From: Syntrophus sp. PtaU1.Bin005
Lineage (GTDB): Bacteria; Desulfobacterota; Syntrophia; Syntrophales; Syntrophaceae
Length of the DNA stretch: 43,857 bases
Assembly: GCA_002067745.1 (NCBI GenBank)
Contig: MVRU01000018.1
Span: 1-43,857 of the forward strand
Reading direction: 5' to 3'
Shown: piece by piece, positions 16,337-33,550 of the stretch
Position numbering within the stretch: position 1 is the first letter of the stretch
Layout: each line of letters starts with the position of its first letter
Notes under the pieces: model-generated
The model's database searches: none
What the model was told of the DNA's origin: nothing
What the model saw: only the letters and a program-made list of their open reading frames with translations
Translations under genes and position numbers: made by a program

Positions 16337-18007
16337 ATGAATGAGACGAAACGACAGATACTTGAACTTATCCACCAAGGTGAAAACCTGACGACTGAGT
16401 TCAAGAGTGATCTCAAATGCCTGCCGGACCGCGAGCTGGTTGCTGCCGTGGTGGCGTTGGCCAACACGGAGGGCGGCGTCCTGCTTCTCGGTGTGGAAGA
16501 CAACGGCGGCATCACAGGTCTCCATGCGAATCATATTCCCTTGGCCGGCTTACCTGCGTTGATTGCCAACAAAACCAATCCCTCCGTTGCTGTGAGGGTT
16601 GAACCTATCGAGTTGGAGGGGCGCCTGATTGCGAAAATGACGGTCCCGAAGTCCAGGCAACTGGTATCTACTTCAGATGGTCTCCTGCAACGACGCCGCC
16701 TGAAACTGGATGGTAAACCTGAAGCGGTGCCTTTCTATCCCCATGAGTTCATTCAGCGCCAGTCCAGTATGGGGCTCACCGACCCATCGGCGCTGCCGCT
16801 GGAGGATGTTTCGGTTGAAGAGCTTGATCCGCTGCAGCGCCTGCGCCTGCGCAACGCCATCAAAAAATATGGTGGCGAGCAGAATCTGCTGGTGCTGGCC
16901 GATGACGAACTGGATGGCGCCTTGGCGCTGGTTGTCGACCATCAGGGGCTTCGCCGCCCCACCGTAGCCGGCTTGCTGCTGCTGGGAACCGAACCCCTGT
17001 TGCGGCAGCACCTGCCCGCCTATGAGGTAGCCTTTCAGGTGCTGCGGCGTACCGATGTCAGAGTCAACGAGTTCTATCGCAAGCCGCTGCTGGAAACCTT
17101 CGAAGAGGTCGAATTACAGTTCAAACCTTGGGTGGTGGAAGAGGAACTGCAAGTCGGGCTGTTTCGCGTCCCCATTCCCAATTACGACCGCCGTGCCTTC
17201 CGTGAGGCCTTCGTCAACGCCCTTGTGCACCGAGACTTCAGCACCCTCGGCGCCGTGCATGTCAAAATTGATGATGATGGCCTAAGCATAAGCAATCCCG
17301 GCGGATTCATCGAAGGGGTCAATCTCGACAATCTGCTGGTTGCACCTCCGCGTTCGCGTAACCCTCTACTGGCAGACATTATCAAACGGATTGGTCTGGC
17401 CGAACGAACCGGACGGGGCATCGACCGCATCTACGAGGGCATGTTGCGCTATGGGCGACCGCTGCCAGACTATGGTCTATCCAGCCCTTACACGGTCAAT
17501 GTTTTCATGGCGAATGTTGCCGCCGATCTGGACTTTCTCAAGATGGTGATCGAGCAGGAGGACAAGCTCGGCAATATGCCGATTGACTCTCTCATCATCC
17601 TTTCACGCCTGCGCGAGGCGCGAAGGCTCACCACTTCAGCCCTGGCGCCATCCGTACAGAAAGCCGAATCCATCGTACGGGCAACCCTGGAGAAACTAGT
17701 TGAAAGCGGCTTCCTGGAGCCCCACGGCACCGGCAGAGGCCGGACGTATACCCTCAGCGCAGCCTTATATCGTGAGTCAGGAAAGAAGTCGGAGTATATC
17801 CGGCAGGCTGGATTTGCACCCATTCAGCAGGAACAGATGGTGCTCAACTACATCGACAAGCATGGTGGGATCAAACGAGAGGAAACCATGGACCTTTGCC
17901 GGCTTGGCAAGGATCAGTCCTACCGACTGCTCAAGAGGCTCGTGAAATCCGGGCATATTCGGTTTGAAGGCAAAGGAAAAGGGGGACGGTATGTACGTGT
18001 ATCCTGA
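16337..18007 (+). CDS. AlbA_2 / HATPase / winged-helix protein inside BREX
   Basis: A 556-residue protein starting 9 bp after brxC. The N-terminal Schlafen AlbA_2 domain (about 15-135: TTEFKSDL, ALANTEGGVLLLGVEDNGGI) is followed by a GHKL-like ATPase segment (about 285-370: REAFVNALVHRDF, DDGLSISNPGG, GLAERTGRGIDRI). Two winged-helix regions are at about 415-470 and 505-556. This architecture is usually annotated as an ATP-binding transcriptional regulator and recurs in BREX loci. It could control the operon; a dense cluster of CCGCGC motifs lies directly downstream, before pglX. A direct role in defence is an alternative. Confidence 0.8.
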   Translation: MNETKRQILELIHQGENLTTEFKSDLKCLPDRELVAAVVALANTEGGVLLLGVEDNGGITGLHANHIPLAGLPALIANKTNPSVAVRVEPIELEGRLIAKMTVPKSRQLVSTSDGLLQRRRLKLDGKPEAVPFYPHEFIQRQSSMGLTDPSALPLEDVSVEELDPLQRLRLRNAIKKYGGEQNLLVLADDELDGALALVVDHQGLRRPTVAGLLLLGTEPLLRQHLPAYEVAFQVLRRTDVRVNEFYRKPLLETFEEVELQFKPWVVEEELQVGLFRVPIPNYDRRAFREAFVNALVHRDFSTLGAVHVKIDDDGLSISNPGGFIEGVNLDNLLVAPPRSRNPLLADIIKRIGLAERTGRGIDRIYEGMLRYGRPLPDYGLSSPYTVNVFMANVAADLDFLKMVIEQEDKLGNMPIDSLIILSRLREARRLTTSALAPSVQKAESIVRATLEKLVESGFLEPHGTGRGRTYTLSAALYRESGKKSEYIRQAGFAPIQQEQMVLNYIDKHGGIKREETMDLCRLGKDQSYRLLKRLVKSGHIRFEGKGKGGRYVRVS

Positions 18008-18199: not shown

Positions 18200-21100
18200 A
18201 TGGAAACAGCCAAACTCAAAAAATTCGCTCAGTTCGCCCGGCGCAGCCTGCTGGACCAGGTCTCCGCCAAGCTAAAACTGGTGCTGGCAGAAAATAGCGC
18301 CGCCCGGCGGGAAAGCACCGAAGCGATCAATAAACTCGAAGAGGCGATCAAGAGCGACAGCAAGGAACAGGTCATCGAGCGGGTGGCCTATATCTGGTTC
18401 AACCGCTTCTGCGCTCTGCGCTTCATGGACGTGAACCGCTACACCCGCATTGGCGTGGTGTCGCCTGCCGAAGGGCAGTTCCAACCAGAAATTTTGGCCG
18501 AAGCCAAGATGGGACACATCGACGAAGAGATGGTGTACGACACGGTCCGGCAGCAGATCTTCGCTCTGCTAGACGGCAAAGCCCCAAGCCGCGACCCGCA
18601 GGGTGAGGCCTACCGCCTGCTGGTGGTGGCCGCCTGCAACTTCTGGAACAAGGCCATGCCATTCCTTTTTCAGCGCATCGATGATTACACTGAACTGCTG
18701 ATGCCCGACGACCTGCTTTCGGGCAACTCCATCCTGGCCTATACCCGCGAGGCGATGACGCCGGATGCCTGCGAGGATGTCGAGGTGATTGGCTGGCTCT
18801 ACCAGTTCTACATCTCCGAGAAGAAGGACGAGGTGTTCGACGGCCTGAAAAAGAACAAGAAAATCACGCCCGAGAATATCCCCGCCGCCACTCAGCTCTT
18901 CACCCCGCACTGGATCGTCCGCTACCTGGTGGAAAACTCCCTCGGCCGCCTCTGGCTGCTGAACCGTCCCAGTTCGAAGCTGATCGAACAGATGGACTAT
19001 TACATCAAGCCCGAAGAGGCCGAGGCGGATTTCCTGCACATCGCTAAGCCGGAAGAGATCAAGATCTGCGATCCGGCCTGCGGTTCCGGCCACATGCTCA
19101 CCTATGCCTTTGACCTCCTTTACGCCATTTACGAAGAGGAAGGCTACGAGCCCGCCGAGATCCCGGAGAAGATCCTCACCCACAACCTCTACGGCATCGA
19201 GATCGACGAACGCGCCGGGGAACTGGCCGCCTTCGCTCTTACCATGAAGGCCCGCGCCAAACAGCGCCGGTTCTTCAGCAAAGGTATCAAGCCGAGCATC
19301 TGCGTACTGGAGAATGTGCGTTTCGAAGAGGGCGAGCTGAAGAACTACATGGATTTTGTCGGGTGCGACCTATTCACCGCGCCACTGGAAACCACCCTGC
19401 GCCAGTTTGAAGAGGCCGATAACTTCGGCTCCCTGATCCGCCCCGATATCACCGACGTGGGCGGCATGCTCAAGATCTTGGAGTTAAAGAACGTCTCCGG
19501 AAATCTGTTTCTGAGCCACACCCACGAGAAGGTGCTGCAAGCCCTGCGGCAGGCCGATTACCTGAGCCCGAAATACCATGTGGTGATTGCAAACCCGCCG
19601 TATATGGGGGGCGGTGGAATGAACAGACGATTAAAGATTTTCGCACAAGATTATTACAAAGCAAGTAAATCTGATCTATTCGCGATGTTTATCGAGCGCA
19701 ACATCGACCTCGCCAAAAAACAAGGGGAGGTTGCAATGATAACTATGCAAAGCTGGATGTTTCTATCATCTCTAGAAACTCTCCGGAAACAAATTCTTCG
19801 AGAACACACGATTCTCTCTATGACTCATCTCGGATCGCGGGCATTTGACAGTATTGGCGGTGATGTTGTCTCAACCACAGCATTCGTTTTAGAAAAGGGT
19901 AGCCGCTCAAATCAGAGAGGCGTTTATTTAAGATTGTTAGATGGTAATTCAGAATCTGAGAAGAAAGCAGCAATTCTTCAGGCAATCAAAAATCCTGGCT
20001 GCGGCTGGTTTTATCGCACGGATTCCACAGACTTTCTTAAATTACCAGGAAATCCTGTTGCGTACTGGCTGAGCAAGAATGTTTTAAGGATATACGATAC
20101 CAAGGAATTACTTGTTTCAGATATTGCAAAATCTGAAGGTAAAAACGTAACCACCCACAATGCTAGATTTATTCGATTTTTTTGGGAAGTTAGTCATCAA
20201 AGCATAGGAGCTTTTGACAAAAAATGGTTGCCTTGTGCAATGGGGGGGGATTTTAGGAAGTGGTTTGGAAACATCATCCATACCATTGATTGGTCCGAAC
20301 AAGCGCGTAGTTTCTACAGGAAAACCCCAGCGGGAAGGATAATTCGACAAGAGTTTTGGAATTTGCCCGGTGTTACTTGGGGGAAAATTGGATCGGCAGT
20401 AGCAAGTTTTCGTTTCTTATCGAATGATGAGATGTATCAAGAGACCGCTGTCCTACAAAAAAACGAGCATGATGCTCGATTCTTACTTGGCTTATTAAAT
20501 TCGAAGATATCATCTCACTTTTTGCATTTCTTGAGCCCCACGATAAATTTTCAGCTTGAAGATATTGGAGCGATACCGCTTTTGAAAATTCAACAGCTCA
20601 AAGATTTAGCAAGAAAAGGTGTGATAGAGATACTGTCTTACGGAAAAGCGGATTGGGATGGGTATGAGCATTCAAGAGACTTCACCAGCCTCCCACTCCT
20701 ACATCCCGACTACCGCCAGCCGACCCTGAAGGCAACTTATCAAAAGCTCCACGCCCACTGGAGGGAGATGACGCTGGAGATGCAGCGGCTTGAGGAGGAA
20801 AATAACCGCATCTTCATCGACGCCTATGGCCTGCAGGATGAGCTGAAGCCCGATGTGCCGCTCAACGAAATCACCCTGATCTGCAACCCGCACTACCGCT
20901 ATGGCAACGACAAGAGCGAGGAAGCGCTGGAGGCGCTGCTGCTGGCTGACACCATGCGCGAGCTGGTCTCCTACGCCGTGGGCTGCATGTTTGGCCGTTA
21001 TGCGCTGGACAAGCCGGGGGTGATCCTGGCCAACCAGGGCGAGACTATCGAGGACTACCTGAAGCGGATTCCTGAGCCCAGCTTCCCGGCCGATGAGGAC

Positions 21101-21697
21101 AACGTCATTCCCATGCTCGAAGGTGACTGGTTCACCGACGACATTGCCGAGCGCTTCCGCAAGTTCCTGCACGTGGCCTTCGGCGAGGAGCACTACGAAG
21201 AAAACCTCCAGTTCGTCGAGCAGGCGCTGAACATCAAGGGCAAGCGCAACTACGGCATCCGCGACTATTTCCTCGGCGAGTTCTACACCGACCATGTAAA
21301 GCGCTACAAGAAGCGCCCCATCTACTGGCTGTTCTCCAGCCCCAAGGGCAGCTTCAACGCGCTGATCTACATGCACCGCTACCGCCCGGATACGGTCAGC
21401 GTGGTGCTCAACGACTACCTGCGCGAGTTCCGCACCAAGCTCACCTCCCACAAGAACCATCTGGAAGCGGTCAGCATCAGCGCCAGTTCCTCCCAGGGCG
21501 AGAAGACCAAGGCCCTGAAGGAGATCGAGAAGATCAACAAGATGATCGCCGAGATGGAGGAGTACGAACGCGAAGTGCTTTATCCGCTGGCCACCGAGCA
21601 GGTGGAAATCGACCTCGACGACGGCGTGAAGGTCAACTACCCTAAACTCGGCGCGGCCTTGAAGAAGATCGTCGGCCTGGAGAGCGCCGAAGATTAG
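18200..21697 (+). CDS. pglX: BREX adenine-specific DNA methyltransferase PglX
   Basis: A 1165-residue N6-adenine methyltransferase that marks host DNA at an asymmetric BREX site. SAM-binding motif I is DPACGSGHML (291-300) and catalytic motif IV is NPPY (465-468). GAGGAAA precedes the ATG. The segment from about 19620 to 20690, which begins just after NPPY and covers the expected target-recognition region, is clearly AT-rich. For example, 20101-20160 has 21 G+C of 60, while 20881-20940 has 38 of 60. This indicates exchange of the specificity region. The frame stays open throughout and no homopolymer tract suggesting phase variation is obvious, apart from a short G7 near 20245. Confidence 0.95.
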   Translation: METAKLKKFAQFARRSLLDQVSAKLKLVLAENSAARRESTEAINKLEEAIKSDSKEQVIERVAYIWFNRFCALRFMDVNRYTRIGVVSPAEGQFQPEILAEAKMGHIDEEMVYDTVRQQIFALLDGKAPSRDPQGEAYRLLVVAACNFWNKAMPFLFQRIDDYTELLMPDDLLSGNSILAYTREAMTPDACEDVEVIGWLYQFYISEKKDEVFDGLKKNKKITPENIPAATQLFTPHWIVRYLVENSLGRLWLLNRPSSKLIEQMDYYIKPEEAEADFLHIAKPEEIKICDPACGSGHMLTYAFDLLYAIYEEEGYEPAEIPEKILTHNLYGIEIDERAGELAAFALTMKARAKQRRFFSKGIKPSICVLENVRFEEGELKNYMDFVGCDLFTAPLETTLRQFEEADNFGSLIRPDITDVGGMLKILELKNVSGNLFLSHTHEKVLQALRQADYLSPKYHVVIANPPYMGGGGMNRRLKIFAQDYYKASKSDLFAMFIERNIDLAKKQGEVAMITMQSWMFLSSLETLRKQILREHTILSMTHLGSRAFDSIGGDVVSTTAFVLEKGSRSNQRGVYLRLLDGNSESEKKAAILQAIKNPGCGWFYRTDSTDFLKLPGNPVAYWLSKNVLRIYDTKELLVSDIAKSEGKNVTTHNARFIRFFWEVSHQSIGAFDKKWLPCAMGGDFRKWFGNIIHTIDWSEQARSFYRKTPAGRIIRQEFWNLPGVTWGKIGSAVASFRFLSNDEMYQETAVLQKNEHDARFLLGLLNSKISSHFLHFLSPTINFQLEDIGAIPLLKIQQLKDLARKGVIEILSYGKADWDGYEHSRDFTSLPLLHPDYRQPTLKATYQKLHAHWREMTLEMQRLEEENNRIFIDAYGLQDELKPDVPLNEITLICNPHYRYGNDKSEEALEALLLADTMRELVSYAVGCMFGRYALDKPGVILANQGETIEDYLKRIPEPSFPADEDNVIPMLEGDWFTDDIAERFRKFLHVAFGEEHYEENLQFVEQALNIKGKRNYGIRDYFLGEFYTDHVKRYKKRPIYWLFSSPKGSFNALIYMHRYRPDTVSVVLNDYLREFRTKLTSHKNHLEAVSISASSSQGEKTKALKEIEKINKMIAEMEEYEREVLYPLATEQVEIDLDDGVKVNYPKLGAALKKIVGLESAED

Positions 21698-21714
21698 CGA
21701 AATATTCGGCTTTG

Positions 21715-21729
21715 AGAGATAATATCTCT
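21715..21729. promoter_or_regulatory. Operator copy 1 (15-bp palindrome)
   Basis: AGAGATAATATCTCT, arms of 7 bp around one base, abuts the -35 box. An identical copy lies 62 bp downstream at 21777-21791. Confidence 0.65.
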
Positions 21730-21756
21730 TGATTAACCATATTTAATTGGTACAAT
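21729..21756 (+). promoter_or_regulatory. Internal promoter for the ATPase-rloB-pglZ-brxL segment
   Basis: A -35 TTGATT (21729-21734) and a -10 TACAAT (21751-21756), 16 bp apart, lie in the 104-bp gap after pglX. They are bracketed by two identical palindromes. Transcription would start near 21763. Confidence 0.6.
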
Positions 21757-21776
21757 TGTATCATGAATCCATTTTA

Positions 21777-21791
21777 AGAGATAATATCTCT
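21777..21791. promoter_or_regulatory. Operator copy 2 (15-bp palindrome)
   Basis: An exact second copy of AGAGATAATATCTCT. It ends just before the GGAGG ribosome-binding site of the next gene. The 62-bp distance from copy 1 is close to six helical turns, suiting cooperative or looping repression. Confidence 0.65.
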
Positions 21792-21801
21792 GGAGGACGT
21801 C

Positions 21802-23148
21802 ATGATTATATCATTTTCCGTTGAAAACTGGCGGTCATTCCGGGATCAGGCTACCCTGACCATGGTTGCCGGGAGAGAGAAGCAGCATAGCGAACGCCTG
21901 CCCGAAATTCCCGGATATGGGATGAAACTTCTACCCATCGCCGCGATCTATGGTGGCAACGCCTCGGGTAAAAGCAACCTTTTTGCGGCTTTAAACTTTG
22001 CCCGTCACCTCATCATTGCTGGAACACAGCCCGAGAGCCTGATCCCAGTGGAGCCATTCCGTCTGGACCCGTCCTATATGCAGAAACCCTCACAGTTTCA
22101 ATTTGAACTCCTCATCCAGGAGAAGTGCTATGAATTCAGCTTTGCTGTGACACGCAAGCGTGTCGTGGAGGAGAAGCTCGTTCAAATCCTGAAGACGACG
22201 GAAAAGGTGCAGTATCACCGCCAGGGTGATCAAATCGAATTTTCACCGGCGCTAAAAGATGACCCGTTCCTGAATTTTGCCTTTAAGGGTACCCGAGAGA
22301 ATCAGCTCTTTCTGACCAATGCCGTGAATCAGAAAGTGGAAACCTTCAAGCCGATTTATAACTGGTTCAAGAACAAGCTGGAGTTGATCGCCCCCGATTC
22401 GCGTTTTGAACCCTTTGAGCGGTTTCTTCAGCAGGATGATCCCCTGTATGGCACCATGCACTCCATGCTGACCCTGCTGGATACGGGCATTGAGCATCTT
22501 GGCGGCGAAGAGATCCCCTTCGAAAACCTCCCGATTCCGGACAGCTTGAAGGAAAGAGTTCAGGCAGAATTGCCGGAAGGCACGACCGTTCGATTGTCAG
22601 CAGAACCTTTTAATGAACGTTATCTGATAACCCGGCAGGATGGGGAGTTGAAGGCCAAGAAACTGGTCTGCTTCCACCGGGACCTTAAGGGAAAGGAAAT
22701 CAAATTCGACATCCAGCTTGAATCAGACGGCACCCAGCGGACCATTGATCTCCTGCCTGCCTTTCTGGAAATGGTCAAGCCGGGAAATGATAAGGTCTAC
22801 GTCATCGATGAGCTGGATCGCAGTCTTCATACCCTGTTAACTCAGAGACTCCTGGAAGGTTTTCTGTCCGCCTGCGACAAGAACTTCCGCTCTCAGCTCC
22901 TTTTCACGACGCATGATGTCCTCCTGATGGATCAGAAACTGCTGCGGCGGGAAGAGATGTGGGTGACGGAACGGGATCAGGAGGGGAACTCGACGCTCTT
23001 TTCCTTCAGTGAGTATAAGGACGTTCGCAACGACAAGGACGTACGGAAAAGCTACCTCCAGGGACGCCTGGGAGGGGTGCCCCGGATCTTGATGGGATCT
23101 TTTTGCCAAACAGCTCCTAAAAATTCCGCCAAGGAAAGTGTGTCATGA
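21802..23148 (+). CDS. AAA15/RloA-like ATPase paired with RloB
   Basis: A 448-residue ABC/SMC-like ATPase of the AAA15 family. The N-terminal MIISFSVENWRSFRDQATL is typical. Walker A is GGNASGKSN (51-59) and the late Walker B VIDELDRSLH begins near 334, followed by LFTTHDVLLMD with the family histidine. It ends with the RKSYLQGRLGGVPRI-type segment. It overlaps the RloB gene by ATGA. Such ATPases pair with TOPRIM-like nucleases in defence modules (RloAB, AbiL-like, and by architecture OLD and PARIS). It is preceded by its own promoter and palindromes inside the BREX operon, which suggests separate control. Confidence 0.85.
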   Translation: MIISFSVENWRSFRDQATLTMVAGREKQHSERLPEIPGYGMKLLPIAAIYGGNASGKSNLFAALNFARHLIIAGTQPESLIPVEPFRLDPSYMQKPSQFQFELLIQEKCYEFSFAVTRKRVVEEKLVQILKTTEKVQYHRQGDQIEFSPALKDDPFLNFAFKGTRENQLFLTNAVNQKVETFKPIYNWFKNKLELIAPDSRFEPFERFLQQDDPLYGTMHSMLTLLDTGIEHLGGEEIPFENLPIPDSLKERVQAELPEGTTVRLSAEPFNERYLITRQDGELKAKKLVCFHRDLKGKEIKFDIQLESDGTQRTIDLLPAFLEMVKPGNDKVYVIDELDRSLHTLLTQRLLEGFLSACDKNFRSQLLFTTHDVLLMDQKLLRREEMWVTERDQEGNSTLFSFSEYKDVRNDKDVRKSYLQGRLGGVPRILMGSFCQTAPKNSAKESVS

Positions 23149-23741
23149 AGGGGCGGCGGAATTTTCGGAGACTCCCGGCCACACGCCCTTACCGAAGGCT
23201 TTTCGTCATCGCGACGGAAGGAGATAAAACGGAGCCTCAATATTTCGCTCTGTTTTCCAGCCGGACCACGACGGTCACCGTGAATTGTCTGAGAAGTCGG
23301 GGGAATAGTGCTCCGCCCGAAGTGCTTAAACGAATGAAGAAGTATATCGAGGACAAGGGATTGAAACGCACTGACGAGGCCTGGCTGGTCGTTGACAAGG
23401 ATCAGTGGCAGGATGATCAGTTGATCCAATTGCAGAACTGGTCAACGACGCAGATAAATTACGGGCTTGCCGTCAGTAATCCCCAATTCGAGCTGTGGCT
23501 GCTGATGCATTTTGAAGACGCTACGGGCGCTGCCACCTCACGGGAATGTTCGGAAAGATTGATTCGACATTTGCCAAACTACGATAAAGGCCATCTCGAT
23601 ACCGGGAAACTGAAACCCGGAATTGCCGCGGCCATCGACCGGGCGAAACAGAAGGATCAGTCGCCCTGCACCGATTGGCCAAGATCTCCGGGAACAACGG
23701 TCTATCGCCTTGTCGAAAAACTGATGAACAGCCAGGGGTGA
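23145..23741 (+). CDS. rloB: RloB-like TOPRIM-type effector
   Basis: A 198-residue RloB family protein. VIATEGDKTEPQYF (about 21-34) supplies the first acidic motif, LVVDKDQW (about 80-87) the DxD-like motif, and SNPQFELWLLMHFE the family signature. A basic N-terminus (MKGRRNFRRLPATRPYRRLF) could contact nucleic acid. RloB proteins resemble TOPRIM nucleases and are presumed effectors of the partner ATPase. Translation is coupled to the ATPase by an ATGA overlap, and pglZ starts 6 bp after its stop, so the pair is embedded in the BREX transcription unit. Confidence 0.85.
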   Translation: MKGRRNFRRLPATRPYRRLFVIATEGDKTEPQYFALFSSRTTTVTVNCLRSRGNSAPPEVLKRMKKYIEDKGLKRTDEAWLVVDKDQWQDDQLIQLQNWSTTQINYGLAVSNPQFELWLLMHFEDATGAATSRECSERLIRHLPNYDKGHLDTGKLKPGIAAAIDRAKQKDQSPCTDWPRSPGTTVYRLVEKLMNSQG

Positions 23742-23747
23742 ACGGGC

Positions 23748-26246
23748 ATGGATAAAATTGGGCAAGCCCTTACCAAACTCTTTGATCGCCATCGCATCGT
23801 CTTCTGGTACGACACGAAGAGGGAATTACACCAGGATTATGATTCCCTGGAGCTGCCGGATGTCCAGAAAATTGAACTTTGCAACAACGAATTTGCCGTC
23901 AAATACCGCGTTCTCCGTGAGCATCCCAACCAGAATTTTCTGCTCTACCATGAAGGACCTCAACCCGCCGATCTGGATAACTGGCTGCTTGATGTGCAAC
24001 TGGCCCACGGCGAGTTCCGCGCCGATCAGGTGGCCATCTGGCTGTCCGAACTGGAACTCGTGCTGGAGTTTACGGATGTGATACAAGCCCATGCGGAATT
24101 CTTCCAGGCGGTCAAGCGTAAGGACGCCCTCAAGAAGCTGCTGAAAGCGGACGACACCGCGAGACAGATTCGCCTGAAGATGCTGGCGGTATGCACCGGC
24201 AGCGAGCCGCGCATGGATGCGGTGGTGGAAAACCTACTGCAAGAGCTGGCCGACGGCCGCGACGAGAAGATCAAGCTGGTCGGCCGATGCAGCCTGGACG
24301 GCTTCCTCTGGGAACAGATGACCCGCTGCTATGGCTACAAGTCCGACGAGCAGCCTGGCATCCGGGATTTTGCCATCGAACTGTTCAAGTCATGCTACGC
24401 CATGGGTACCGACGGCCAGGTGAAACTGACCGGCGACGCCCTGGTGTTTCTCAAACGCTGGAAGGACAGCCGTCAGTTCGAAGGCGGCTTCGAGACCCTC
24501 TCGGGAGAATGCGCCGAGGTCCTCGGGATTGAGCAGGATCTGGCCAAGAGGGATTTCCGGGAGTTGATCGAACTGGATTACTTCCGCCTGATCGACCAGA
24601 AGATCATCAGCGACCTAGTGCGGGCCGTCGAATCGTGCACGGTCGGGAGCGGTGATGTGTCGCTCTGGGTTCGCCAGCGGCGGCAGGGCCACTGGTATTG
24701 CGAATACCGGCATCTGTACGAGGCGGTCGATTACGCCGCCCAGTTTACCCACGCCCTGGGCGAGACCACGCTCGCCATGGACAGCCTGGCCGATGGCGTG
24801 CAGCGCTACAGCCGATTCTGGTATCAGCTCGATCAGCTTTACCGAAAGTTCACCTACCACGTGCGCATGTCTGGGCAGGCTTCGCTGATGGGCAGCCTGA
24901 CCGAGCAGATTGAAAACCTCTATTCCAACAACTTCTTGCTGAAGATGGGCGACAGCTTCCAGACCTTCGTGGATTCGGCATCGAAGTGGGAAGCCCTCCC
25001 CGTGCGCAAGCAGAAGGAGTTTTTCGAGCACTGGGTACGGCCGTTCCTAAGCAAGGACAACAAGGTCTGCGTAATCATCTCCGACGCCATGCGCTATGAG
25101 ATCGGCAATGAGTTGCTAAGCCTCATCCGACAGGAGGACCGTTACAGCGCCGAACTGGAACCGGCGCTTTCGGTGCTGCCCAGTTACACCCAACTCGGCA
25201 TGGCGGCGCTCCTGCCCAACAAGGAGCTAACGATTGCCGAGGGCGACACCGGCACCGTGCTGGTGGATGGGCAAAGTTCACAGGGGACGGCTAGCCGCAT
25301 CAAGCTCCTAGAAAAGGCATCAGCTGCGCGTGCGACGGCCTGCAAGGCCGATGCGCTGATGGCCATGAAGGGCGACGACTGCCGGGCGTTGGTGCGCGAC
25401 CACGACGTGATCTACGTCTACCACAACCGGATCGACGCCACCGGCGACAAGAGGGAATCCGAGGAGCGGGTTTTTGAGGCGGTGGAAGAGACTTTGCAGG
25501 AGCTGATTCGCCTGATCAAGAAGCTAAACAACGCAAATTTATACAACTTCCTGGTCACCTCGGACCATGGATTCATCTACCAGAACCGCGCCATCGACGA
25601 GAGCGACTTTTCCGGAGTCGATGCCGAGGGAGATCAGATTCTGTTCCGGGACCGCCGCTTCGTGTTCGGCAAGGGGCTTGTCGAAGCATCCAGCCTGCAC
25701 AAGTTCACTCCCGAACAGCTTGGCCTTGCCGGCGAGGTGGAGGTTCAGATTCCCAAGTCGATCAACCGCCTGCGCCTGAAGGGCTCCGGCAGCCGTTATG
25801 TGCATGGCGGCGCATCGCTGCAGGAGGTGGTGATCCCGGTGCTCAAGATCAACAAGAAGCGCCAGAGCGATGTGACAGCCGTCGGGGTGGACATCCTGCG
25901 CGGAGCCAGTTCGGTGATCACCTCCGGGCAACTGGCGGTGACGCTGTACCAGTCCGGACCGGTGACGGACAAGATCCAGCCGCGTGTGCTGCGGGCCGGC
26001 ATCTACACCGAAGCTGGCGTCCGGATCTCCGACAGCCATGACCTGACCTTTGACCTGAGTTCGGACAATCCCCGGGAGCGGGAGGTTCAGGTGCGCTTCG
26101 TGCTGACCCGCAAGGCCGACAAGGCCAACGGCCAAGAGGTCATTCTCAGCCTGGAGGAAAAGCACGCCGGGACATCACATTATAAGGAATACAAGTCGCT
26201 CCGGTATTTGATGCGGCGTTCATTTACCAGCGATTTTGACTTTTAA
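23748..26246 (+). CDS. pglZ: BREX phosphatase-like protein PglZ
   Basis: An 832-residue type A PglZ of the alkaline-phosphatase superfamily. Metal-site motifs are readable: VIISDAMRYEIG (D446) and LVTSDHGFIY (D606, H607), with YVYHNRIDATGD between them. The N-terminus MDKIGQALTKLFDRHRIVFWYD is characteristic of the family. It is a core BREX component found in complexes with PglX and BrxC. The start is 6 bp downstream of rloB and brxL follows after 14 bp. The first 250 bp are less GC-rich than the rest, as in rloB. That may mark an insertion or recombination boundary near 24000. Confidence 0.94.
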   Translation: MDKIGQALTKLFDRHRIVFWYDTKRELHQDYDSLELPDVQKIELCNNEFAVKYRVLREHPNQNFLLYHEGPQPADLDNWLLDVQLAHGEFRADQVAIWLSELELVLEFTDVIQAHAEFFQAVKRKDALKKLLKADDTARQIRLKMLAVCTGSEPRMDAVVENLLQELADGRDEKIKLVGRCSLDGFLWEQMTRCYGYKSDEQPGIRDFAIELFKSCYAMGTDGQVKLTGDALVFLKRWKDSRQFEGGFETLSGECAEVLGIEQDLAKRDFRELIELDYFRLIDQKIISDLVRAVESCTVGSGDVSLWVRQRRQGHWYCEYRHLYEAVDYAAQFTHALGETTLAMDSLADGVQRYSRFWYQLDQLYRKFTYHVRMSGQASLMGSLTEQIENLYSNNFLLKMGDSFQTFVDSASKWEALPVRKQKEFFEHWVRPFLSKDNKVCVIISDAMRYEIGNELLSLIRQEDRYSAELEPALSVLPSYTQLGMAALLPNKELTIAEGDTGTVLVDGQSSQGTASRIKLLEKASAARATACKADALMAMKGDDCRALVRDHDVIYVYHNRIDATGDKRESEERVFEAVEETLQELIRLIKKLNNANLYNFLVTSDHGFIYQNRAIDESDFSGVDAEGDQILFRDRRFVFGKGLVEASSLHKFTPEQLGLAGEVEVQIPKSINRLRLKGSGSRYVHGGASLQEVVIPVLKINKKRQSDVTAVGVDILRGASSVITSGQLAVTLYQSGPVTDKIQPRVLRAGIYTEAGVRISDSHDLTFDLSSDNPREREVQVRFVLTRKADKANGQEVILSLEEKHAGTSHYKEYKSLRYLMRRSFTSDFDF

Positions 26247-26260
26247 AGGACAGGTGACCG

Positions 26261-28318
26261 ATGAACGAACTTGACCAGAAAATCAACACACACTTTCCGG
26301 GACTCGTTGTCCGCAAGGATCTCGTCAAGACGGTCAAGGGCAACGCCATCGTTCCCTCCTACGTGCTGGAATACCTGCTGGGACAGTATTGCGCCACATC
26401 GGATGACGCTAGTATCCAGTCGGGAATCAAGACGGTCCAGGATATCCTTCAGAAGCATTATGTCCACCGGAACGAAGCGGGACTGGTGCGGTCGATTACA
26501 AGGGAAAAGGGACGACATAAGGTTATCGACAAGGTCAGCGTTTCCTTGAACGATAAAAGCGATACCTATGAAGCGCAATTCGCCAACCTCGGGATTAACA
26601 AAGTGCTCGTAGATACGGACACGGTGAAGAAGCACCCTCGCTTTTTGGTCAGCGGCGTGTGGTGTATCTCTGATCTGGAATATGAGTTCTCCGATAGTAA
26701 GGGCGCAAGTCCGTGGATTCTCAATTCCGTCAAACCGATCCAAATTTCCCATTTCGACTTCGAGGGCTACCTGTCTGCGCGCAAGCAGTTTACAACCGAT
26801 GAATGGATCGATCTCCTCATGCAGAGCATCGGTTTCAATCCGGAAATGTTCGGCAAAAGGAGCAAGCTCCTCCAACTGGTTCGCCTGATCCCTTTCTGCG
26901 AAAGGAACTACAACCTGATCGAACTGGGTCCCAAAGGCACTGGCAAATCACATATCTATTCGGAATTTTCCCCCCATGGAATCCTTATATCCGGTGGTGA
27001 GGTTTCCGTTCCCAAGCTGTTCGTGAATAATACCACTGGAAAGATCGGTCTAGTCGGCTACTGGGATACTGTGGCCTTTGATGAGTTTGCAGGGAAAAAC
27101 AAGAGGGTGGATGGGAAACTGGTCGATATTATGAAAAACTACATGGCCAACAAGTCCTTCTCGCGAGGCATTGAAACGCTCGGTGCCGAGGCCTCGATGG
27201 TGTTTGTCGGCAACACTCAGCATAACCTTCCCTTTATGCTCAAGCACACGGATCTTTTCGACGACCTTCCGGAAAAATACCACGATTCGGCATTCCTCGA
27301 CAGGCTCCACTTTTATATCCCCGGCTGGGAGATCGATATTATTCGCGGAGAGATGTTTTCTTCAGGATATGGATTCGTCGTCGATTATTTAGCGGAGATC
27401 CTCAGGACATTCAGGAGTTATGACTACTCGCAGAATTTAAAGGAACACTTCGATCTGCTAAAGGATATTTCGACACGTGACCGCGATGGGATCAACAAAA
27501 CTTTCTCGGGCATGATGAAGATTCTTTATCCATCGGGTGAAGCCTCCAAGGCTGAAATGGAAGAGATCCTGCGATTCGCTATTGAGGGTCGGAAGCGGGT
27601 CAAGGATCAACTTCTGAGAATCGATCCTACATTTGAAGATGTCCTGTTTGGCTATACCGAAGCTGCAGGCAATCAGATTCTTGTCAAGACGCTTGAAGAG
27701 GAACAATACCCTCAGTATTACCAATCAAAGAGCAAGTCCGATTCGAAATCCGGAGAAGATAACGCCGATGATTTCAGAGAAGCAGATAGCGCGGCCTCGA
27801 CAGGCATAATTTCAGAAGAGATATTTGCAGAAAAACACCTGACATTTAAGGAAAATCAACGAGGAGTATCCTTTGATTTGCTCCTTGGTCCCTATTTAAA
27901 GAACGCAAAGAAAATCGTAGTTACAGACCCCTATATCCGCCTATTTTTCCAGGCCAGGAATCTGATGGAGTTCCTGGAAACGATTGCAAAGATGAAGCAG
28001 GATGAAGAAGAGGTTACCGTTCATCTGATTACGGTAGAAGATGATTTCAAAGGGCTGCAGCAACTGGATTATTTTCAAAAGATGCAGGAAACCTGTGAAC
28101 CTGTCGGCATACATTTTACCTGGGAGTATAACGAAGCAGCGACTATTCATGCACGGCATATCTTGACCGATCACGGCTGGAAAATCCTGCTTGATCGCGG
28201 TCTCGACATCTTCCAGCACTATGACATGAACGACGCCTTTGCCATTGCCAATCGCCTGCAAAAATACAGGCCATGCAAAGCGTTCGAGGTGACGTTCCTG
28301 AAGACAGAAGTTAATTGA
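26261..28318 (+). CDS. brxL: BREX Lon-like AAA+ protein BrxL with atypical C-terminus
   Basis: A 685-residue protein closing the BREX operon; AGGACAGGTG precedes the ATG. The N-terminal domain (1-190) begins MNELDQKINTHFPGLVVRKDLVK. The AAA+ domain has Walker A GPKGTGKS (223-230), a Walker B-like VAFDEFAG and FVGNTQHN as sensor. From about residue 527 (FDLLLGPYLKNAKKIVVTDPYI ... TIHARHIL ... WKILLDRGLDIFQ) the sequence resembles the phospholipase-D-like MIT C-terminal domain. I find no Lon Ser-Lys dyad. An acidic, Ser-rich linker (about 490-525) separates the parts. BrxL is required for phage restriction but not methylation in studied systems. Confidence 0.9.
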   Translation: MNELDQKINTHFPGLVVRKDLVKTVKGNAIVPSYVLEYLLGQYCATSDDASIQSGIKTVQDILQKHYVHRNEAGLVRSITREKGRHKVIDKVSVSLNDKSDTYEAQFANLGINKVLVDTDTVKKHPRFLVSGVWCISDLEYEFSDSKGASPWILNSVKPIQISHFDFEGYLSARKQFTTDEWIDLLMQSIGFNPEMFGKRSKLLQLVRLIPFCERNYNLIELGPKGTGKSHIYSEFSPHGILISGGEVSVPKLFVNNTTGKIGLVGYWDTVAFDEFAGKNKRVDGKLVDIMKNYMANKSFSRGIETLGAEASMVFVGNTQHNLPFMLKHTDLFDDLPEKYHDSAFLDRLHFYIPGWEIDIIRGEMFSSGYGFVVDYLAEILRTFRSYDYSQNLKEHFDLLKDISTRDRDGINKTFSGMMKILYPSGEASKAEMEEILRFAIEGRKRVKDQLLRIDPTFEDVLFGYTEAAGNQILVKTLEEEQYPQYYQSKSKSDSKSGEDNADDFREADSAASTGIISEEIFAEKHLTFKENQRGVSFDLLLGPYLKNAKKIVVTDPYIRLFFQARNLMEFLETIAKMKQDEEEVTVHLITVEDDFKGLQQLDYFQKMQETCEPVGIHFTWEYNEAATIHARHILTDHGWKILLDRGLDIFQHYDMNDAFAIANRLQKYRPCKAFEVTFLKTEVN

Positions 28319-28444: not shown

Positions 28445-31400
28445 ATGATTCCTGAATTACTTGAGCCGAAATTGAACCTGTTGAGTGAAGAATATATCCT
28501 CATTCAGGCTTGGAAAAAGACGGTATCATATATCCGGTCTCACAATTGGTATGCAGATACCATGGAACTCGACCGTGCCGCTGTAAACCTCCATGAATTC
28601 CTAAAAGATTTGGCAGATAGCCTTGCATCCCCTACGGATTGGGGTAATACCGCACTTCGGATTGTTCCTGCACCGAAAAGCCAGCGGTGGCACGTTGATC
28701 CAAAAACAGGATGGGTACCCACAAAAGAAACACGACCGGAAAAGAAAATTAGACCGTTAGCTCATGTTGCTCTTGAAGATCAGGTTGCAGCCACAGCCGT
28801 GATGCTTTGCTTGGCGGACCGCGTCGAGACACTCCAGGGAGACCCACGAACCTCCATCGAAAATAAGGATAACCGAAAACAAGTACTTTCTTATGGAAAC
28901 AGACTATTTTGTGACAGCCACGCCAACGAATTAAGGCACCGTTGGGGATCTACGAAACTCTATCGTGGCTATTTTCAGGACTATCGAACATTTCTCGCCC
29001 GCCCAGAAAAGGTAGCCGAAGAGTTTGATGAAAATATCGTAATAGTCCATTCTGACTTAAGCCAATTTTACGATAGAGTCCGACCTGAGTTGTTATTCGA
29101 TAAGATCGAAGCATTAAAACAGCCAAAAGATGATACCCAATTTTACATTAAAGCTCGTCACATTCTCCATTGGGAATGGGACAAGAGGGATAAACGCGAA
29201 GTCACCGAGTATGCAAAGCAGTCAGGGATCGATGATTTTTCGGAAGTCGCACTACCTCAAGGGCTTGTAGCTTCAGGATTCTTCGCGAATATTGTGCTTC
29301 ATGATTTTGATCGAGCTCTTCAAGCTTCCATCGAAAGTGAAGAACATTTCATTCCGTCAGCGATATTGCTTGATGCGTGCCGTTATGTTGATGACATTCG
29401 GCTTGTGCTGAAAGTTGAAAGAAGACAGAAACTCAGTGAAATAGAAAACCAAGTATTTTCTCAACTCAAAATACTACTTGACCAAAACGCTAATGGTTTG
29501 ATCCCATCTCATGGCAAAACTATAGCAACATATTTTCGAGGCGACGAGCGCCCGCTGGTTCGTCAAAGCCGGAAGATGGAGCGGATTCAGCAGGCCATGT
29601 CTGGGGGCTTTGATGCGCTTGCTGGCGAAGAAATTATTGAGTCCATACAGGGACTGGCCCGTTCACAGAATCGTTACTCAAAAGAGAGAACAGGAGATAA
29701 AGGATGGGCGTTTGCCCCAATTGCTGATGTCCGTGATGAAACAGTTGCTCGATTTGCAGCGGCTCGGTTCCGTTCAACATTTCGGTCCCTGAGACCTTTA
29801 CTAGATGCTCGGCACGAAAGCACAAAGCAAGATGAGGATGAAGGAGAAATTGATTTCCTTTTGCGAGATGAGCGTAAAACACAAGCTGAACTGGACGATG
29901 ACGCCAGGGCCTTTGCCCTAGGGCTTATTGAAAAGTGGGTGGAAGATCCTTCGAATGTTCGCTTGTTGCGAATAGGAGTTGATCTCTGGCCTGCAAAAGA
30001 CGTTATTCAGCAAATTCTAGAAATATTAAAGCCATACACCACAAAAGGTGGCAAGAGGAAAGCCCCGAGACGGATAGCATGGTATTGTCTTGCTGAGCTT
30101 TTTCGGGCTGGTGCAACAGAGACTGGTTTCGTCGCAGATAATGAATCGTTGCCTGATGCCATTAATATTGAAGAATATCGTCAAGTTCTTCTTGATGAGG
30201 CAAAGCGTCTTGCGGAACAGAATCAGCAGGCTTTGCCTTGGTATTTGAAACAGCAAATTCTACTCTTTCTGGCAGCAAATAATCCTCAAGAAGCCCCTGT
30301 TCTGCGTAGCGGCAGCAACCCCGAGACAAGGCACTACCGTGACCTGATTCGATATTTAAGGGGAGAAATAAGCGATCTTCAAGATAGAGATTACGCTATT
30401 CTCGCCATACTGGCACGTCGCTCATTTCCTGCTTCAAATGAACCGGTCCAGTTGGCGATTAAGAATATCTCGCCAAATCGTTATAAGCATATAGCAGAAC
30501 GTGATCCATCATTTGCGATAGAACTCAATTCGGTCGATCCATCAATATCACAAACCCTTCCGGCAAGGATTCGTCACGACTTATGCCTCACACAACAATG
30601 TCCTCTTGAGGAGATGGAATCCCTTGCCAAACTTGTACTTGGTTGCGAAACAGAAAACCGCGGACAGCTGAGCAATGAACTGACCATGCTGCAATTCTCG
30701 GAAAAGTTTATCAATAAATTGCAGTCGACGGTGCCAATGGAAATTATTTCTCCATCCGATGTTCTGGTAAGCTTTAGTAAGGCTGGAAAATGCGGCATCA
30801 TGATCAACTCCGTTGAACTCCAGCAAAACAAGCTATCTGTAAGCAGTTTTCTTTATAGACCACCTACTTGGTGTGAATCTAAAGACCGATGGCGGTTCCA
30901 GCTTGGCTATCTGTTACGCTTTATCCTTACTACAAAGCAGGATTTCACAAGAGCTGTGAGGCCAACCCACTGGAAAGAGGGAAAAGCCTCCTACAGGGTT
31001 CCAGAAAGTCATTGGTATCAAAGAATCTATGGACACCATAACGGGCACTCGGTATTCGGAGCCGATTGGTTGCCTATCACAGATTGGATGGAACAATTTC
31101 TATATGCGCTGTTAAGATGGCCTGGCTCCCGTGCTTCTAACATGTTCCAGAGTATCGAAAACGGGATTTCGGAGACGTCGTTACTTGTAAATAAAAGAAT
31201 CAGGGATCTTCAAAAGATAAAGGGACAACTTTCAGATGTTTTGATGCTGCCATTATCATCTGGATGGCCAGAAAAACCTTCAAAAGATCGATCACTTCGT
31301 GTTTGTGTTGTACAATCTGTGATTCCAACCCCCAAAGACATTAAAGATGCTACTGATCTTTCGTTACTTGAACCATCGCTCCGAAAACGACATCGCAATC

Positions 31401-32260
31401 ATTTATCTGCTGCTCTTGAAGCGGTTAAACGAATGCTTGATTTGAGGGAGACACACAAGAAAGGCGACGGCAGACTGGACTTTTTGATTTTCCCAGAATT
31501 GTCAATTCACCCTGATGATGTCGATACGCATCTTGTTCCTTTTGCCCGTGCATTCAAGACAATAATTTTTGCAGGGTTAACCTATGAAGACTTGTTCCCT
31601 GGTCAACCACTCATCAATTCTGCTCTTTGGCTGATTCCTGTTTGGTCTGAACGTCGAGGGTTGCAAGTTATTCGTCGCAGACAAGGGAAAGAATATCTTG
31701 CACCCGATGAAAAACGTATGAATTATCCAGATCTTAAAGTGCGTGGATTTCGACCTTGCCAGTGGCTTGTCGGATATAAGTGGGACAAAGATGACAAAAA
31801 AGATCCACTTTGGTTAACAGGTTCAATTTGTTTTGACGCCACCGACATTCGCCTTGCTGCTGATCTTCGTAGCCTATCAGACGTTTACGCAGTAGCTGCA
31901 ATGAATAAGGACGTAAGTACTTTTGATCAGATGGCTTTGGCTCTTCAATACCATATGTTCCAGATGGTAATCATTGCCAATAATGGATGTTTTGGCGGCA
32001 GTAATGCATACGCGCCCTATCGAGAACCTTACCGGAGAAAAGTCTTCCATTTACATGGCCAGCCGCAAGCATCTATGGCATTTTTAGAGATTGAAAATAT
32101 CGATGAATTTCTTCGCAGAGATAAGCATGCATTAGAACCATCTATCAATACATCCTGCATGGCCGACCCAACAAAAACATGTCTGTCAGTTCCTCAAAGA
32201 GTATGGAAATGTCCTCCTGCTGGGATATGTCTAGGCGATACCTGTCTACATAAATTATGA
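28445..32260 (+). CDS. Reverse transcriptase-nitrilase fusion (DRT1/UG1-type defence RT)
   Basis: A 1271-residue two-enzyme fusion. The reverse transcriptase part (about 60-400) shows motif A SDLSQFYD (203-210), motif B PQGLVASGF (271-279), catalytic motif C YVDD (314-317) and the SHGKT segment. A long helical middle links to a C-terminal nitrilase fold: catalytic Glu in FPELS (E1018) and nucleophile Cys in GSICFD (C1129), followed by NNGCFGGSNA. This order defines defence-associated RT type 1 (unknown group 1). Such proteins protect against phage by a mechanism not fully known. The gene stands alone, 126 bp after brxL, without a clear ribosome-binding site beyond GAG, and is less GC-rich than pglX and pglZ. 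Confidence 0.92.
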   Translation: MIPELLEPKLNLLSEEYILIQAWKKTVSYIRSHNWYADTMELDRAAVNLHEFLKDLADSLASPTDWGNTALRIVPAPKSQRWHVDPKTGWVPTKETRPEKKIRPLAHVALEDQVAATAVMLCLADRVETLQGDPRTSIENKDNRKQVLSYGNRLFCDSHANELRHRWGSTKLYRGYFQDYRTFLARPEKVAEEFDENIVIVHSDLSQFYDRVRPELLFDKIEALKQPKDDTQFYIKARHILHWEWDKRDKREVTEYAKQSGIDDFSEVALPQGLVASGFFANIVLHDFDRALQASIESEEHFIPSAILLDACRYVDDIRLVLKVERRQKLSEIENQVFSQLKILLDQNANGLIPSHGKTIATYFRGDERPLVRQSRKMERIQQAMSGGFDALAGEEIIESIQGLARSQNRYSKERTGDKGWAFAPIADVRDETVARFAAARFRSTFRSLRPLLDARHESTKQDEDEGEIDFLLRDERKTQAELDDDARAFALGLIEKWVEDPSNVRLLRIGVDLWPAKDVIQQILEILKPYTTKGGKRKAPRRIAWYCLAELFRAGATETGFVADNESLPDAINIEEYRQVLLDEAKRLAEQNQQALPWYLKQQILLFLAANNPQEAPVLRSGSNPETRHYRDLIRYLRGEISDLQDRDYAILAILARRSFPASNEPVQLAIKNISPNRYKHIAERDPSFAIELNSVDPSISQTLPARIRHDLCLTQQCPLEEMESLAKLVLGCETENRGQLSNELTMLQFSEKFINKLQSTVPMEIISPSDVLVSFSKAGKCGIMINSVELQQNKLSVSSFLYRPPTWCESKDRWRFQLGYLLRFILTTKQDFTRAVRPTHWKEGKASYRVPESHWYQRIYGHHNGHSVFGADWLPITDWMEQFLYALLRWPGSRASNMFQSIENGISETSLLVNKRIRDLQKIKGQLSDVLMLPLSSGWPEKPSKDRSLRVCVVQSVIPTPKDIKDATDLSLLEPSLRKRHRNHLSAALEAVKRMLDLRETHKKGDGRLDFLIFPELSIHPDDVDTHLVPFARAFKTIIFAGLTYEDLFPGQPLINSALWLIPVWSERRGLQVIRRRQGKEYLAPDEKRMNYPDLKVRGFRPCQWLVGYKWDKDDKKDPLWLTGSICFDATDIRLAADLRSLSDVYAVAAMNKDVSTFDQMALALQYHMFQMVIIANNGCFGGSNAYAPYREPYRRKVFHLHGQPQASMAFLEIENIDEFLRRDKHALEPSINTSCMADPTKTCLSVPQRVWKCPPAGICLGDTCLHKL

Positions 32261-32349: not shown

Positions 32350-32420
32350 TGGTCGGGAGAAACTGTACAGGTGCGTAAGTGAGAAAGCTGCTCTATAATG
32401 CCCCGAAGGAGGAGCAACAT

Positions 32421-32723
32421 ATGAGCAAAAGACCGAGAAGGAATCATGCACCGGCGTTCAAGGCAAAAGTGGCTTTAGACGCCCTGAAAGGAGACCAGAC
32501 GATCGTTGAACTTGCCCAGCGATATCAGGTTCATCCGAATCAGATCACAGAGTGGAAGAAGCAGCTCCTTGAACATGCAGAGGATATTTTCAGCAAAGAC
32601 AGAAAGACGGATCAAGGCCCGAACATCAAGGATCTTCACGCAAAAATCGGCCAGCTATCGATGGAGAACGATTTTTTATCCGGCGCGCTCGTTCGAATAG
32701 GAGACACGAGCGCAAAACGATGA
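32421..32723 (+). CDS. IS3-family OrfA (helix-turn-helix)
   Basis: About 100 residues from ATG 32421, which follows GGAGGAGC; the frame is open from 32379. FKAKVALDALKGDQTIVELAQRYQVHPNQITEWKK is the HTH_Tnp_1 domain that binds the terminal repeats. A leucine-zipper-like segment (IKDLHAKIGQLSMENDFL) follows. It overlaps orfB by ATGA. In this family an OrfAB fusion may also be made by ribosomal frameshifting. Confidence 0.9.
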   Translation: MSKRPRRNHAPAFKAKVALDALKGDQTIVELAQRYQVHPNQITEWKKQLLEHAEDIFSKDRKTDQGPNIKDLHAKIGQLSMENDFLSGALVRIGDTSAKR

Positions 32724-33550
32724 TCGACAGGGAAGATCCTCTTCCAATAACACGGCAATGCAGTCTTCTGGATCTGAGCAGATCCGGATTTTACTATACT
32801 CCAAGGCCGGTAAGTGCAAAAGACCTGGAGCTGATGCGTCAAATTGACGAGATTCATCTGGCCTTTCCTTTTTATGGGAGTCGTAAAATTCGCGACGAAC
32901 TTTGGGCAAGAAAGCATAACGTGGGTCGTGACAGGGTTCGCCGGCTGATGCGTCGGATGGGCATCGAGGCTCTGTATGTCAAGCCTAGACTCTCCCAGCC
33001 TCATCCGGAGCATGTAAAATATCCCTATCTGCTGCGAGGGCTTGAGATCAACCGGGCCAACCAGGTGTGGACAGCCGATATCACATATATTCCCATGGCA
33101 AAGGGATTCTGTTATCTTGTGGCAATTATGGACTGGGCCAGCCGGATGGTTCTTTCCTGGCGCCTTTCCAATACCCTGGACAGTGCTTTCTGTGTGGACG
33201 CTTTGGAAGAAGCCATCGCCAAATACGGCTGTCCTGAAATCTTCAATACGGACCAGGGACGCCAGTTTACTGCCGAAACATTTACAGATGCCCTTAAATC
33301 CAGGGGTATTGCGATCAGCATGGACGGTAAAGGCCGCTGGATGGACAACGTCTTCATCGAAAGGTTATGGAGAAGCGTCAAGTACGAGGATATTTATCTA
33401 AAGGCTTACAATTCGATGGCAGAGACCAAGCGGGGACTGGCCGCCTATTTTACGTTCTATAATGAAAAGAGATGGCACCAGAACTTTGACAGGAAAACTC
33501 CAGCTATGGTTTACTTTGATTCTCTACCGCAGAAACAGGCTGCGGCATGA
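32720..33550 (+). CDS. IS3-family transposase OrfB
   Basis: A 276-residue DDE transposase. The HTH_21-like region (DEIHLAFPFYGSRKIRDEL) precedes the rve core with acidic residues in WTADITYIPM, FNTDQGRQFT and FIERLWRSVKYE. It ends with YNEKRWHQNFDRKTPAMVYF, typical for the family. The frame is intact, so the element may be functional. Confidence 0.93.
   Translation: MIDREDPLPITRQCSLLDLSRSGFYYTPRPVSAKDLELMRQIDEIHLAFPFYGSRKIRDELWARKHNVGRDRVRRLMRRMGIEALYVKPRLSQPHPEHVKYPYLLRGLEINRANQVWTADITYIPMAKGFCYLVAIMDWASRMVLSWRLSNTLDSAFCVDALEEAIAKYGCPEIFNTDQGRQFTAETFTDALKSRGIAISMDGKGRWMDNVFIERLWRSVKYEDIYLKAYNSMAETKRGLAAYFTFYNEKRWHQNFDRKTPAMVYFDSLPQKQAAA

What the first reader, a model, noticed from the sequence alone, without database searches (positions are those of the whole stretch)
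21715..21791. Internal BREX promoter bracketed by two identical 15-bp palindromes 62 bp apart
AGAGATAATATCTCT occurs exactly twice, once abutting the -35 and once just before the Shine-Dalgarno of the ATPase gene. The spacing is near six helical turns. This is a strong repressor-loop layout for a gene pair likely toxic when active, and no obvious dedicated repressor gene sits beside it.
Basis: partly seen in the sequence, partly recalled or inferred. Interest (0 to 1): 0.65.

Follow-up and report, generated by a model that had tools for sequence, protein, structure and literature searches.

The report
Conserved twin operators controlling rloAB defence genes
A two-gene phage-defence cassette that has inserted into a BREX system carries its own promoter framed by two identical DNA switches, and the same pair of switches at the same spacing occurs with these two genes in unrelated bacteria, so the cassette most likely turns itself down with its own proteins.

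Summary
AGAGATAATATCTCT (7-1-7 palindrome) lies at 21715-21729 and 21777-21791, centres 62 bp apart, and nowhere else in the 2.9 Mb genome. It frames a sigma-70-like promoter of rloA/abiLi (OLD-type ATPase), which overlaps rloB/abiLii.

The pair is not a BREX feature. 33 of 39 rloA loci (most 56-65% identical RloA; Chlamydiota, Desulfobacterota, Pseudomonadota, Spirochaetota, others) carry two GNGA-N5-TCNC operators centred 61-63 bp apart, and none of the others is in BREX. Op1 is 84% identical between non-redundant loci; the sequence between the operators is 35% identical. No third gene is shared. More distant rloAB carry another palindrome (TTGCA-N7-TGCAA). Operator class follows the RloA and RloB trees and not the host: five genomes of the window's own order carry the second class.

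Best explanation: a horizontally moving rloAB cassette brings its own operators and is repressed by RloA and/or RloB, bound to both sites across the promoter. Operator identity and linkage to the cassette are well supported. Which protein binds, and whether the DNA loops, is inferred: neither protein has a recognisable DNA-binding domain. I found no published account of such operators for RloAB/AbiL in the library searched.

The parts
21715..21729 (.). Operator 1 (op1), AGAGATAATATCTCT, centre 21722; extended symmetric region about 21712-21732
   Evidence: op1 in the 33 of 39 loci with the pair, consensus TWAWGAGAWWWTTTCTCTTTA
21729..21756 (+). Predicted sigma-70 promoter TTGATT-16-TACAAT, its -35 overlapping op1 by one base
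   Evidence: consensus match only; a sigma-70-like promoter lies between the operators in the 20 non-redundant loci
21777..21791 (.). Operator 2 (op2), identical 15-mer, centre 21784, 62 bp from op1; in the predicted 5' UTR
   Evidence: op2 at 61-63 bp from op1 in 33 of 39 loci
21792..21796 (+). Shine-Dalgarno GGAGG of rloA, directly after op2
   Evidence: sequence
21802..23148 (+). rloA / abiLi: OLD-type ABC/AAA_21 ATPase, 448 aa; candidate repressor or co-repressor
   Evidence: Pfam AAA_21 2.8e-35; PADLOC AbiLi 1.1e-81
23145..23741 (+). rloB / abiLii: RloB family, TOPRIM-type per literature, predicted toxic effector, 198 aa; start overlaps the rloA stop
   Evidence: Pfam RloB 8.3e-38; PADLOC AbiLii 3.1e-26
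18200..21697 (+). pglX, upstream neighbour; the cassette sits between it and pglZ
   Evidence: PADLOC PglX, E=0
23748..26246 (+). pglZ, starts 6 bp after rloB, so probably also fed by the rloA promoter
   Evidence: PADLOC PglZ, E=0; spacing

Best explanation
The two palindromes are the operator pair of a horizontally moving two-gene defence cassette, rloA-rloB (AbiL type), which carries its own promoter into whatever locus it enters, here between pglX and pglZ of a type 1 BREX operon. A protein encoded by the cassette (RloA, RloB, or most likely the RloA-RloB assembly) binds both operators, about six helical turns apart on one face of the DNA and flanking the core promoter, and blocks transcription. 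That keeps a toxic effector low and in ratio with its ATPase partner; loss or engagement of the complex would relieve repression. Shown here: the operators, their genome-wide uniqueness, their conservation and fixed spacing, their restriction to rloAB, and the co-divergence of operator class with RloA and RloB. Inferred: the identity of the binder, repression rather than activation, and bridging or looping.
For: Unique pair in the genome and in 155 genomes of the class. 33 of 39 rloA loci carry two GNGA-N5-TCNC sites with centres 61 (3), 62 (11) or 63 (19) bp apart; 20 are non-redundant. Seed scores as high as the best site of every locus (20 or more) never occurred in shuffled upstream sequence and in 0.1% of windows elsewhere. 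Op1 core identity is 0.84 between loci against 0.35 for the sequence between; operator spacing SD is 0.7 bp while the predicted -35 and -10 offsets vary by 2.9 and 3.5 bp. Loci lie in unrelated neighbourhoods; after RloA and RloB the commonest non-shadow gene families are in 11-12 of 40 loci, all from one related element. None is in BREX. A second operator class, trained on five loci, was found in independent distant rloAB promoters: 9 loci at shuffle p of 0.008 or less and one at 0.03. Class clusters on both trees: 3 changes (RloA) and 2 (RloB) for the GAGA class against about 14 in shuffles; same-order genomes carry the other class.
Against: No recognisable DNA-binding domain in RloA or RloB, and the structure models were too poor to reveal one. 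Six of the 39 close loci show only one good operator, so two sites are not always needed. Some distant relatives show neither operator class, and one GAGA-type row (L059) sits in the GCA clade. No expression or binding data exist. Fixed spacing could partly reflect packing of promoter and Shine-Dalgarno between the sites. Some -35 and -10 calls are probably wrong, so the spacing contrast is overstated for a few loci.
Confidence: 0.7

Rival explanations
1. A host-encoded or globally acting regulator (BrxR-like WYL protein, LexA-like or other) binds the two operators.
For: BREX loci can be controlled by BrxR binding two 11-bp inverted repeats with a 5-bp spacer (PMC9122601), a similar geometry. 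Neither RloA nor RloB has a known DNA-binding domain.
Against: The operators recur with rloAB across many phyla and outside BREX; genomes of the same order carry the other operator class with the other RloAB clade; no other operator pair exists in the genome to form a regulon; none of the neighbouring proteins scanned gave a WYL or other regulator hit.
Confidence: 0.12
2. The operators are bound by a cassette protein that activates the promoter or senses infection: op1 upstream of the -35 is in activator position, and op2 is an accessory or roadblock site.
For: Op1 lies just upstream of the -35 in nearly all loci, with the -35 mostly 13-15 bp from its centre, and is better conserved than op2.
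Against: Op2 lies downstream of the predicted start site next to the Shine-Dalgarno, a repressor position; in the window the -35 overlaps op1; several relatives have the site inside the promoter spacer (L053, L035).
Confidence: 0.1
3. RNA-level control: op2 forms a hairpin beside the Shine-Dalgarno and gates translation.
For: The 15-mer can fold (-3.7 kcal/mol, z -3.0).
Against: Op1, the better conserved copy, is outside the transcript. The whole leader is no more stable than shuffles (z -0.9). Op2 in many loci is GCGA-N5-TCAC, whose -5/+5 C-A cannot pair in RNA.
Confidence: 0.04
4. The repeats are recombination sites flanking an invertible or deletable promoter.
For: Two identical near-palindromes flank the promoter.
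Against: In most relatives op1 and op2 differ in sequence, and the promoter and operator order are the same in all loci read; no third gene, hence no recombinase, is shared by all loci.
Confidence: 0.03

Closest known systems
AbiE type IV toxin-antitoxin (AbiEi autorepressor)
   Same: Bicistronic abortive-infection pair; the first gene's product binds two inverted repeats in its own promoter cooperatively, bends DNA and represses the operon (PMC7319586).
   Different: AbiE repeats are 23 bp and separated by 3 bp; here two self-palindromic 15-bp sites lie 62 bp centre to centre around the promoter; RloA is an OLD-type ATPase without a recognised DNA-binding domain and is not AbiEi.
BrxR/WYL repressor of BREX and defence islands
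   Same: Defence-locus control through an inverted repeat with a 5-bp spacer (PMC9122601).
   Different: BrxR is a separate gene; its repeat arms are 11 bp; the present sites travel with rloAB outside BREX and no BrxR gene was seen in the annotated neighbourhood.
AbiL (AbiLi/AbiLii) and RloAB
   Same: The genes themselves: AbiLi and AbiLii profiles hit RloA and RloB; RloB homologues are described as TOPRIM-related (PMC10440598).
   Different: No promoter operator pair for this family was found in the papers searched.
PARIS (AriA/AriB)
   Same: OLD-type ABC ATPase plus separate TOPRIM nuclease, of a kind often recruited to BREX loci (PMC12839542); AriA is a hexamer (PMC12409363).
   Different: RloB matches Pfam RloB and AbiLii rather than AriB; no operator of this kind is reported in the PARIS text I searched.

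Membership tests
AbiL / RloAB defence cassette | AbiLi-type ATPase followed directly by RloB-family protein | tested here: met
   AbiLi 1.1e-81, AbiLii 3.1e-26, Pfam AAA_21 and RloB; overlapping genes
AbiL / RloAB defence cassette | Phage-protective or toxic activity | not testable with these tools
   Only literature: F. nucleatum AbiLii toxic in E. coli (PMC3985639)
Self-repressed toxin-antitoxin-like operon | Operator overlapping or flanking the operon promoter | tested here: met
Self-repressed toxin-antitoxin-like operon | Operator specificity linked to the operon's own proteins | tested here: met
   Operator class clusters on RloA and RloB trees, not with host order
Self-repressed toxin-antitoxin-like operon | An operon protein binds the operator | not testable with these tools
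   No DNA-binding domain detected; needs binding assays
BrxR-controlled BREX promoter | WYL/BrxR gene at the locus | tested here: inconclusive
   None of the proteins scanned between 7065 and 39914 hit a WYL family; the rest of the genome was not searched for one
BrxR-controlled BREX promoter | Operators belong to BREX loci | tested here: not met
   No other rloA locus with these operators has BREX core genes
DNA-looping operator pair | Two sites held at an integral number of helical turns | tested here: met
   61-63 bp in all 33 two-operator loci = 5.8-6.0 turns
DNA-looping operator pair | Phase-dependent repression when the spacing is changed by half turns | not testable with these tools
   Needs reporter constructs

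The most novel reading that the evidence does not exclude
The RloA-RloB assembly, an OLD-type ATPase plus TOPRIM-type effector with no classical DNA-binding domain, is itself a sequence-specific repressor that bridges two operators across its own promoter, so that phage sensing, effector release and induction of the operon are one coupled event; its DNA specificity has diverged into at least two classes as the family spread.
Probability: 0.3. Interest if true: 0.8.

Novelty: new variant of a known kind. Interest (0 to 1): 0.62.

Why it matters
Regulation of OLD-type ATPase plus nuclease defence pairs (AbiL/RloAB and, by extension, PARIS-like pairs) is barely described in the literature I could search. 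A portable operator pair that comes with the cassette would explain how a toxic module can land in a BREX operon, a plasmid, a phage-like element or a chlamydial chromosome and still be kept in check. It also gives a ready test: two operator classes that should each respond only to their own RloAB. In this window the cassette may also place pglZ and brxL under the RloAB operator.

Tried and rejected
AlphaFold of RloA (mean pLDDT 58.8) and RloB (75), and a Foldseek search with RloB (no match at E 0.001 or better), gave nothing on DNA binding. Sequence searches of solved structures gave no relative of RloA or RloB. A scan of viral contigs for the pair pattern gave mostly coding and repeat chance matches; four of the stretches read were rloA loci, and these carry the AT-rich operator form. 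A strict symmetric-core test on ten new distant loci was only weakly positive (3 of 10 at a score with 7% background; two of the three are near-copies); the trained matrix was clearer, but the class was noticed before the test was designed, and one GAGA-type locus (L010) also scored p 0.009 with it. RNA hairpin and invertible promoter were considered and rejected. I searched for the empty site through PglZ relatives in the class, but only two distant ones exist.

Full report
Observation. The 15-mer AGAGATAATATCTCT stands at 21715-21729 and 21777-21791 and nowhere else in the 2.9 Mb genome. Within two mismatches the genome has two further places, one of them inside a window ORF, and no other pair of GAGA-N5-TCTC sites 40-60 bp apart. 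In 20,000 Markov resamples of the 104-bp intergenic region no exact repeated 15-mer appeared, and two or more 7-1-7 palindromes appeared in 0.015%. Between the two lies one sigma-70-like site, TTGATT-16-TACAAT, whose -35 shares one base with the first palindrome. The second palindrome ends directly before GGAGG, ten bases before the rloA ATG.

Setting. The locus is a type 1 BREX operon: brxA (11477), brxB (12100), brxC (ORF from 12605), an AlbA_2/HATPase_c_4 protein (16337), pglX (18200-21697), then rloA (21802-23148) and rloB (23145-23741), then pglZ (23748) and brxL (26261). RloA and RloB match AbiLi and AbiLii. rloA and rloB overlap by 4 bases; pglZ starts 6 bases after rloB, so transcription from the rloA promoter probably continues into pglZ and brxL (inference).

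The operators belong to rloAB, not to BREX. A scan of one genome for each of 84,980 species returned 28 loci with RloA 56-65% identical to this one, from Chlamydiota, Desulfobacterota, Pseudomonadota, Spirochaetota and others by record title; some titles are MAG labels and may be wrong. Viral contigs and plasmids added more. Reading the upstream regions showed the same arrangement nearly everywhere: an inverted repeat just upstream of a sigma-70-type promoter and a second just before the Shine-Dalgarno. Scored systematically, 33 of 39 loci have two sites with centres 61 (3), 62 (11) or 63 (19) bp apart, 20 of them non-redundant. Op1 reads TWAWGAGA-WWWTT-TCTCTTTA, with GAG and CTC invariant in the 20 loci; op2 is GNGA-N5-TCNC, more degenerate. 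Scores of 20 or more were never reached in shuffled upstream sequence and in 0.1% of windows elsewhere in the same loci. The other six have one good site. No other rloA locus contains BREX core genes, and neighbours differ from locus to locus. After RloA, RloB and shadow frames, the commonest shared genes are in 11-12 of 40 loci, all from one related element. In 155 genomes of the same class the AT-rich pair occurs only here.

Selection on sites and spacing. Among the 20 non-redundant loci the op1 core is 84% identical on average while the sequence between the operators is 35% identical, close to chance for AT-rich DNA; operator spacing has an SD of 0.7 bp while the predicted -35 and -10 positions have SDs of 2.9 and 3.5 bp, partly from doubtful promoter calls. 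In the window itself the promoter sits 7-8 bp nearer op1 than in most loci, but the operator spacing is unchanged. 61-63 bp is 5.8-6.0 helical turns, so both sites should face the same side of the DNA.

What binds. The conserved unit is promoter region + rloA + rloB, so the regulator is most simply one of these two proteins or their complex. An independent argument comes from distant relatives. RloA homologues about 33% identical from the window's own order carry a different palindrome, TTGCA-N7-TGCAA, in or near the promoter. A matrix trained on five of these found the same element in distant plasmid, phage and viral-contig rloAB promoters: L054, L055, L061, L184-L187, L189 and L192 at shuffle p of 0.008 or less, L188 at 0.03. 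L052 (Agrobacterium) and L053 (Fusobacterium) instead carry GNGA-N5-TCNC forms. On trees of RloA and RloB the GAGA class needs 3 and 2 changes against about 14 in shuffled labels. Labels were assigned by me after seeing the sequences, so the tree result is descriptive; L059 is a clear exception. A host regulator would not make two operator classes within one bacterial order follow the clade of a mobile cassette.

Limits. Neither protein has a recognisable DNA-binding domain in Pfam, even at lax thresholds over the family, and the structure predictions were too weak to help. Repression rather than activation is inferred from site positions and from the toxicity of a homologous effector, F. nucleatum AbiLii (PMC3985639). 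DNA looping or bridging is inferred from spacing alone. L023 appears to lack rloB yet keeps op2, and L190, an RloA homologue without RloB, lacks both operator classes; neither decides between RloA and RloB.

Rivals. A BrxR-type regulator has similar site geometry (PMC9122601) but would not travel with rloAB outside BREX. An RNA hairpin is unlikely: op1 is not transcribed from this promoter, the leader is no more stable than shuffles, and a frequent op2 form has a C-A mismatch. An invertible promoter is unlikely because the two sites differ in most loci and orientation never changes in the loci read.

Comparison with known systems. It works like self-repressed Abi and toxin-antitoxin operons, with AbiE the nearest described example (PMC7319586), but is not AbiE: other proteins, other site geometry. 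The cassette is AbiL/RloAB by gene content. I found no description of operators for this family in the papers searched; most subscription papers are not in that library and I did not read the original AbiL paper (cited), so novelty is provisional.

Noticed in passing
28445-32260 (+): 1271-aa reverse transcriptase directly after brxL, matching the Drt1a DRT profile over its whole length (PADLOC E=0): a second defence system next to the BREX operon.
   Followed up: partly
33662-37964 (+): AAA_5 and McrC-like genes overlap by one base and the next gene, a cysteine desulfurase matching SspA/DndA (about 3e-149), overlaps the McrC-like gene by 4 bases; may be a McrBC-like system tied to DNA sulfur modification, or a coincidental iscS-type gene.
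   Followed up: no
32379-33550 (+): IS3-type transposase pair between the reverse transcriptase and the McrBC-like genes.
   Followed up: no
16337-18007 (+): AlbA_2 / HATPase_c_4 protein between brxC and pglX, followed by a 192-bp gap with many CGCGC tracts upstream of pglX.
   Followed up: no
26261-28318 (+): BrxL carries a C-terminal phospholipase-D-like domain (MIT_C, 8.5e-41), apparently the kind of BrxL-HKD fusion described in PMC12839542.
   Followed up: no
L032, L034-L037, L054, L055, L061, L184-L189, L192, upstream of rloA: Second operator class TTGCA-N7-TGCAA in distant rloAB promoters, sometimes filling the -35/-10 spacer.
   Followed up: yes
L195, about 764-783: Lactococcus prophage AbiL-like pair has another palindrome, AAAACG-N6-CGTTTT, in the leader just before its Shine-Dalgarno: possibly a third operator class.
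   Followed up: no
L190:1501-3323: Treponema plasmid RloA homologue is followed by an annotated nucleotide pyrophosphohydrolase instead of RloB and lacks both operator classes.
   Followed up: no
L023:1563-2909: Armatimonadetes MAG has rloA with op2 but no visible rloB downstream.
   Followed up: partly
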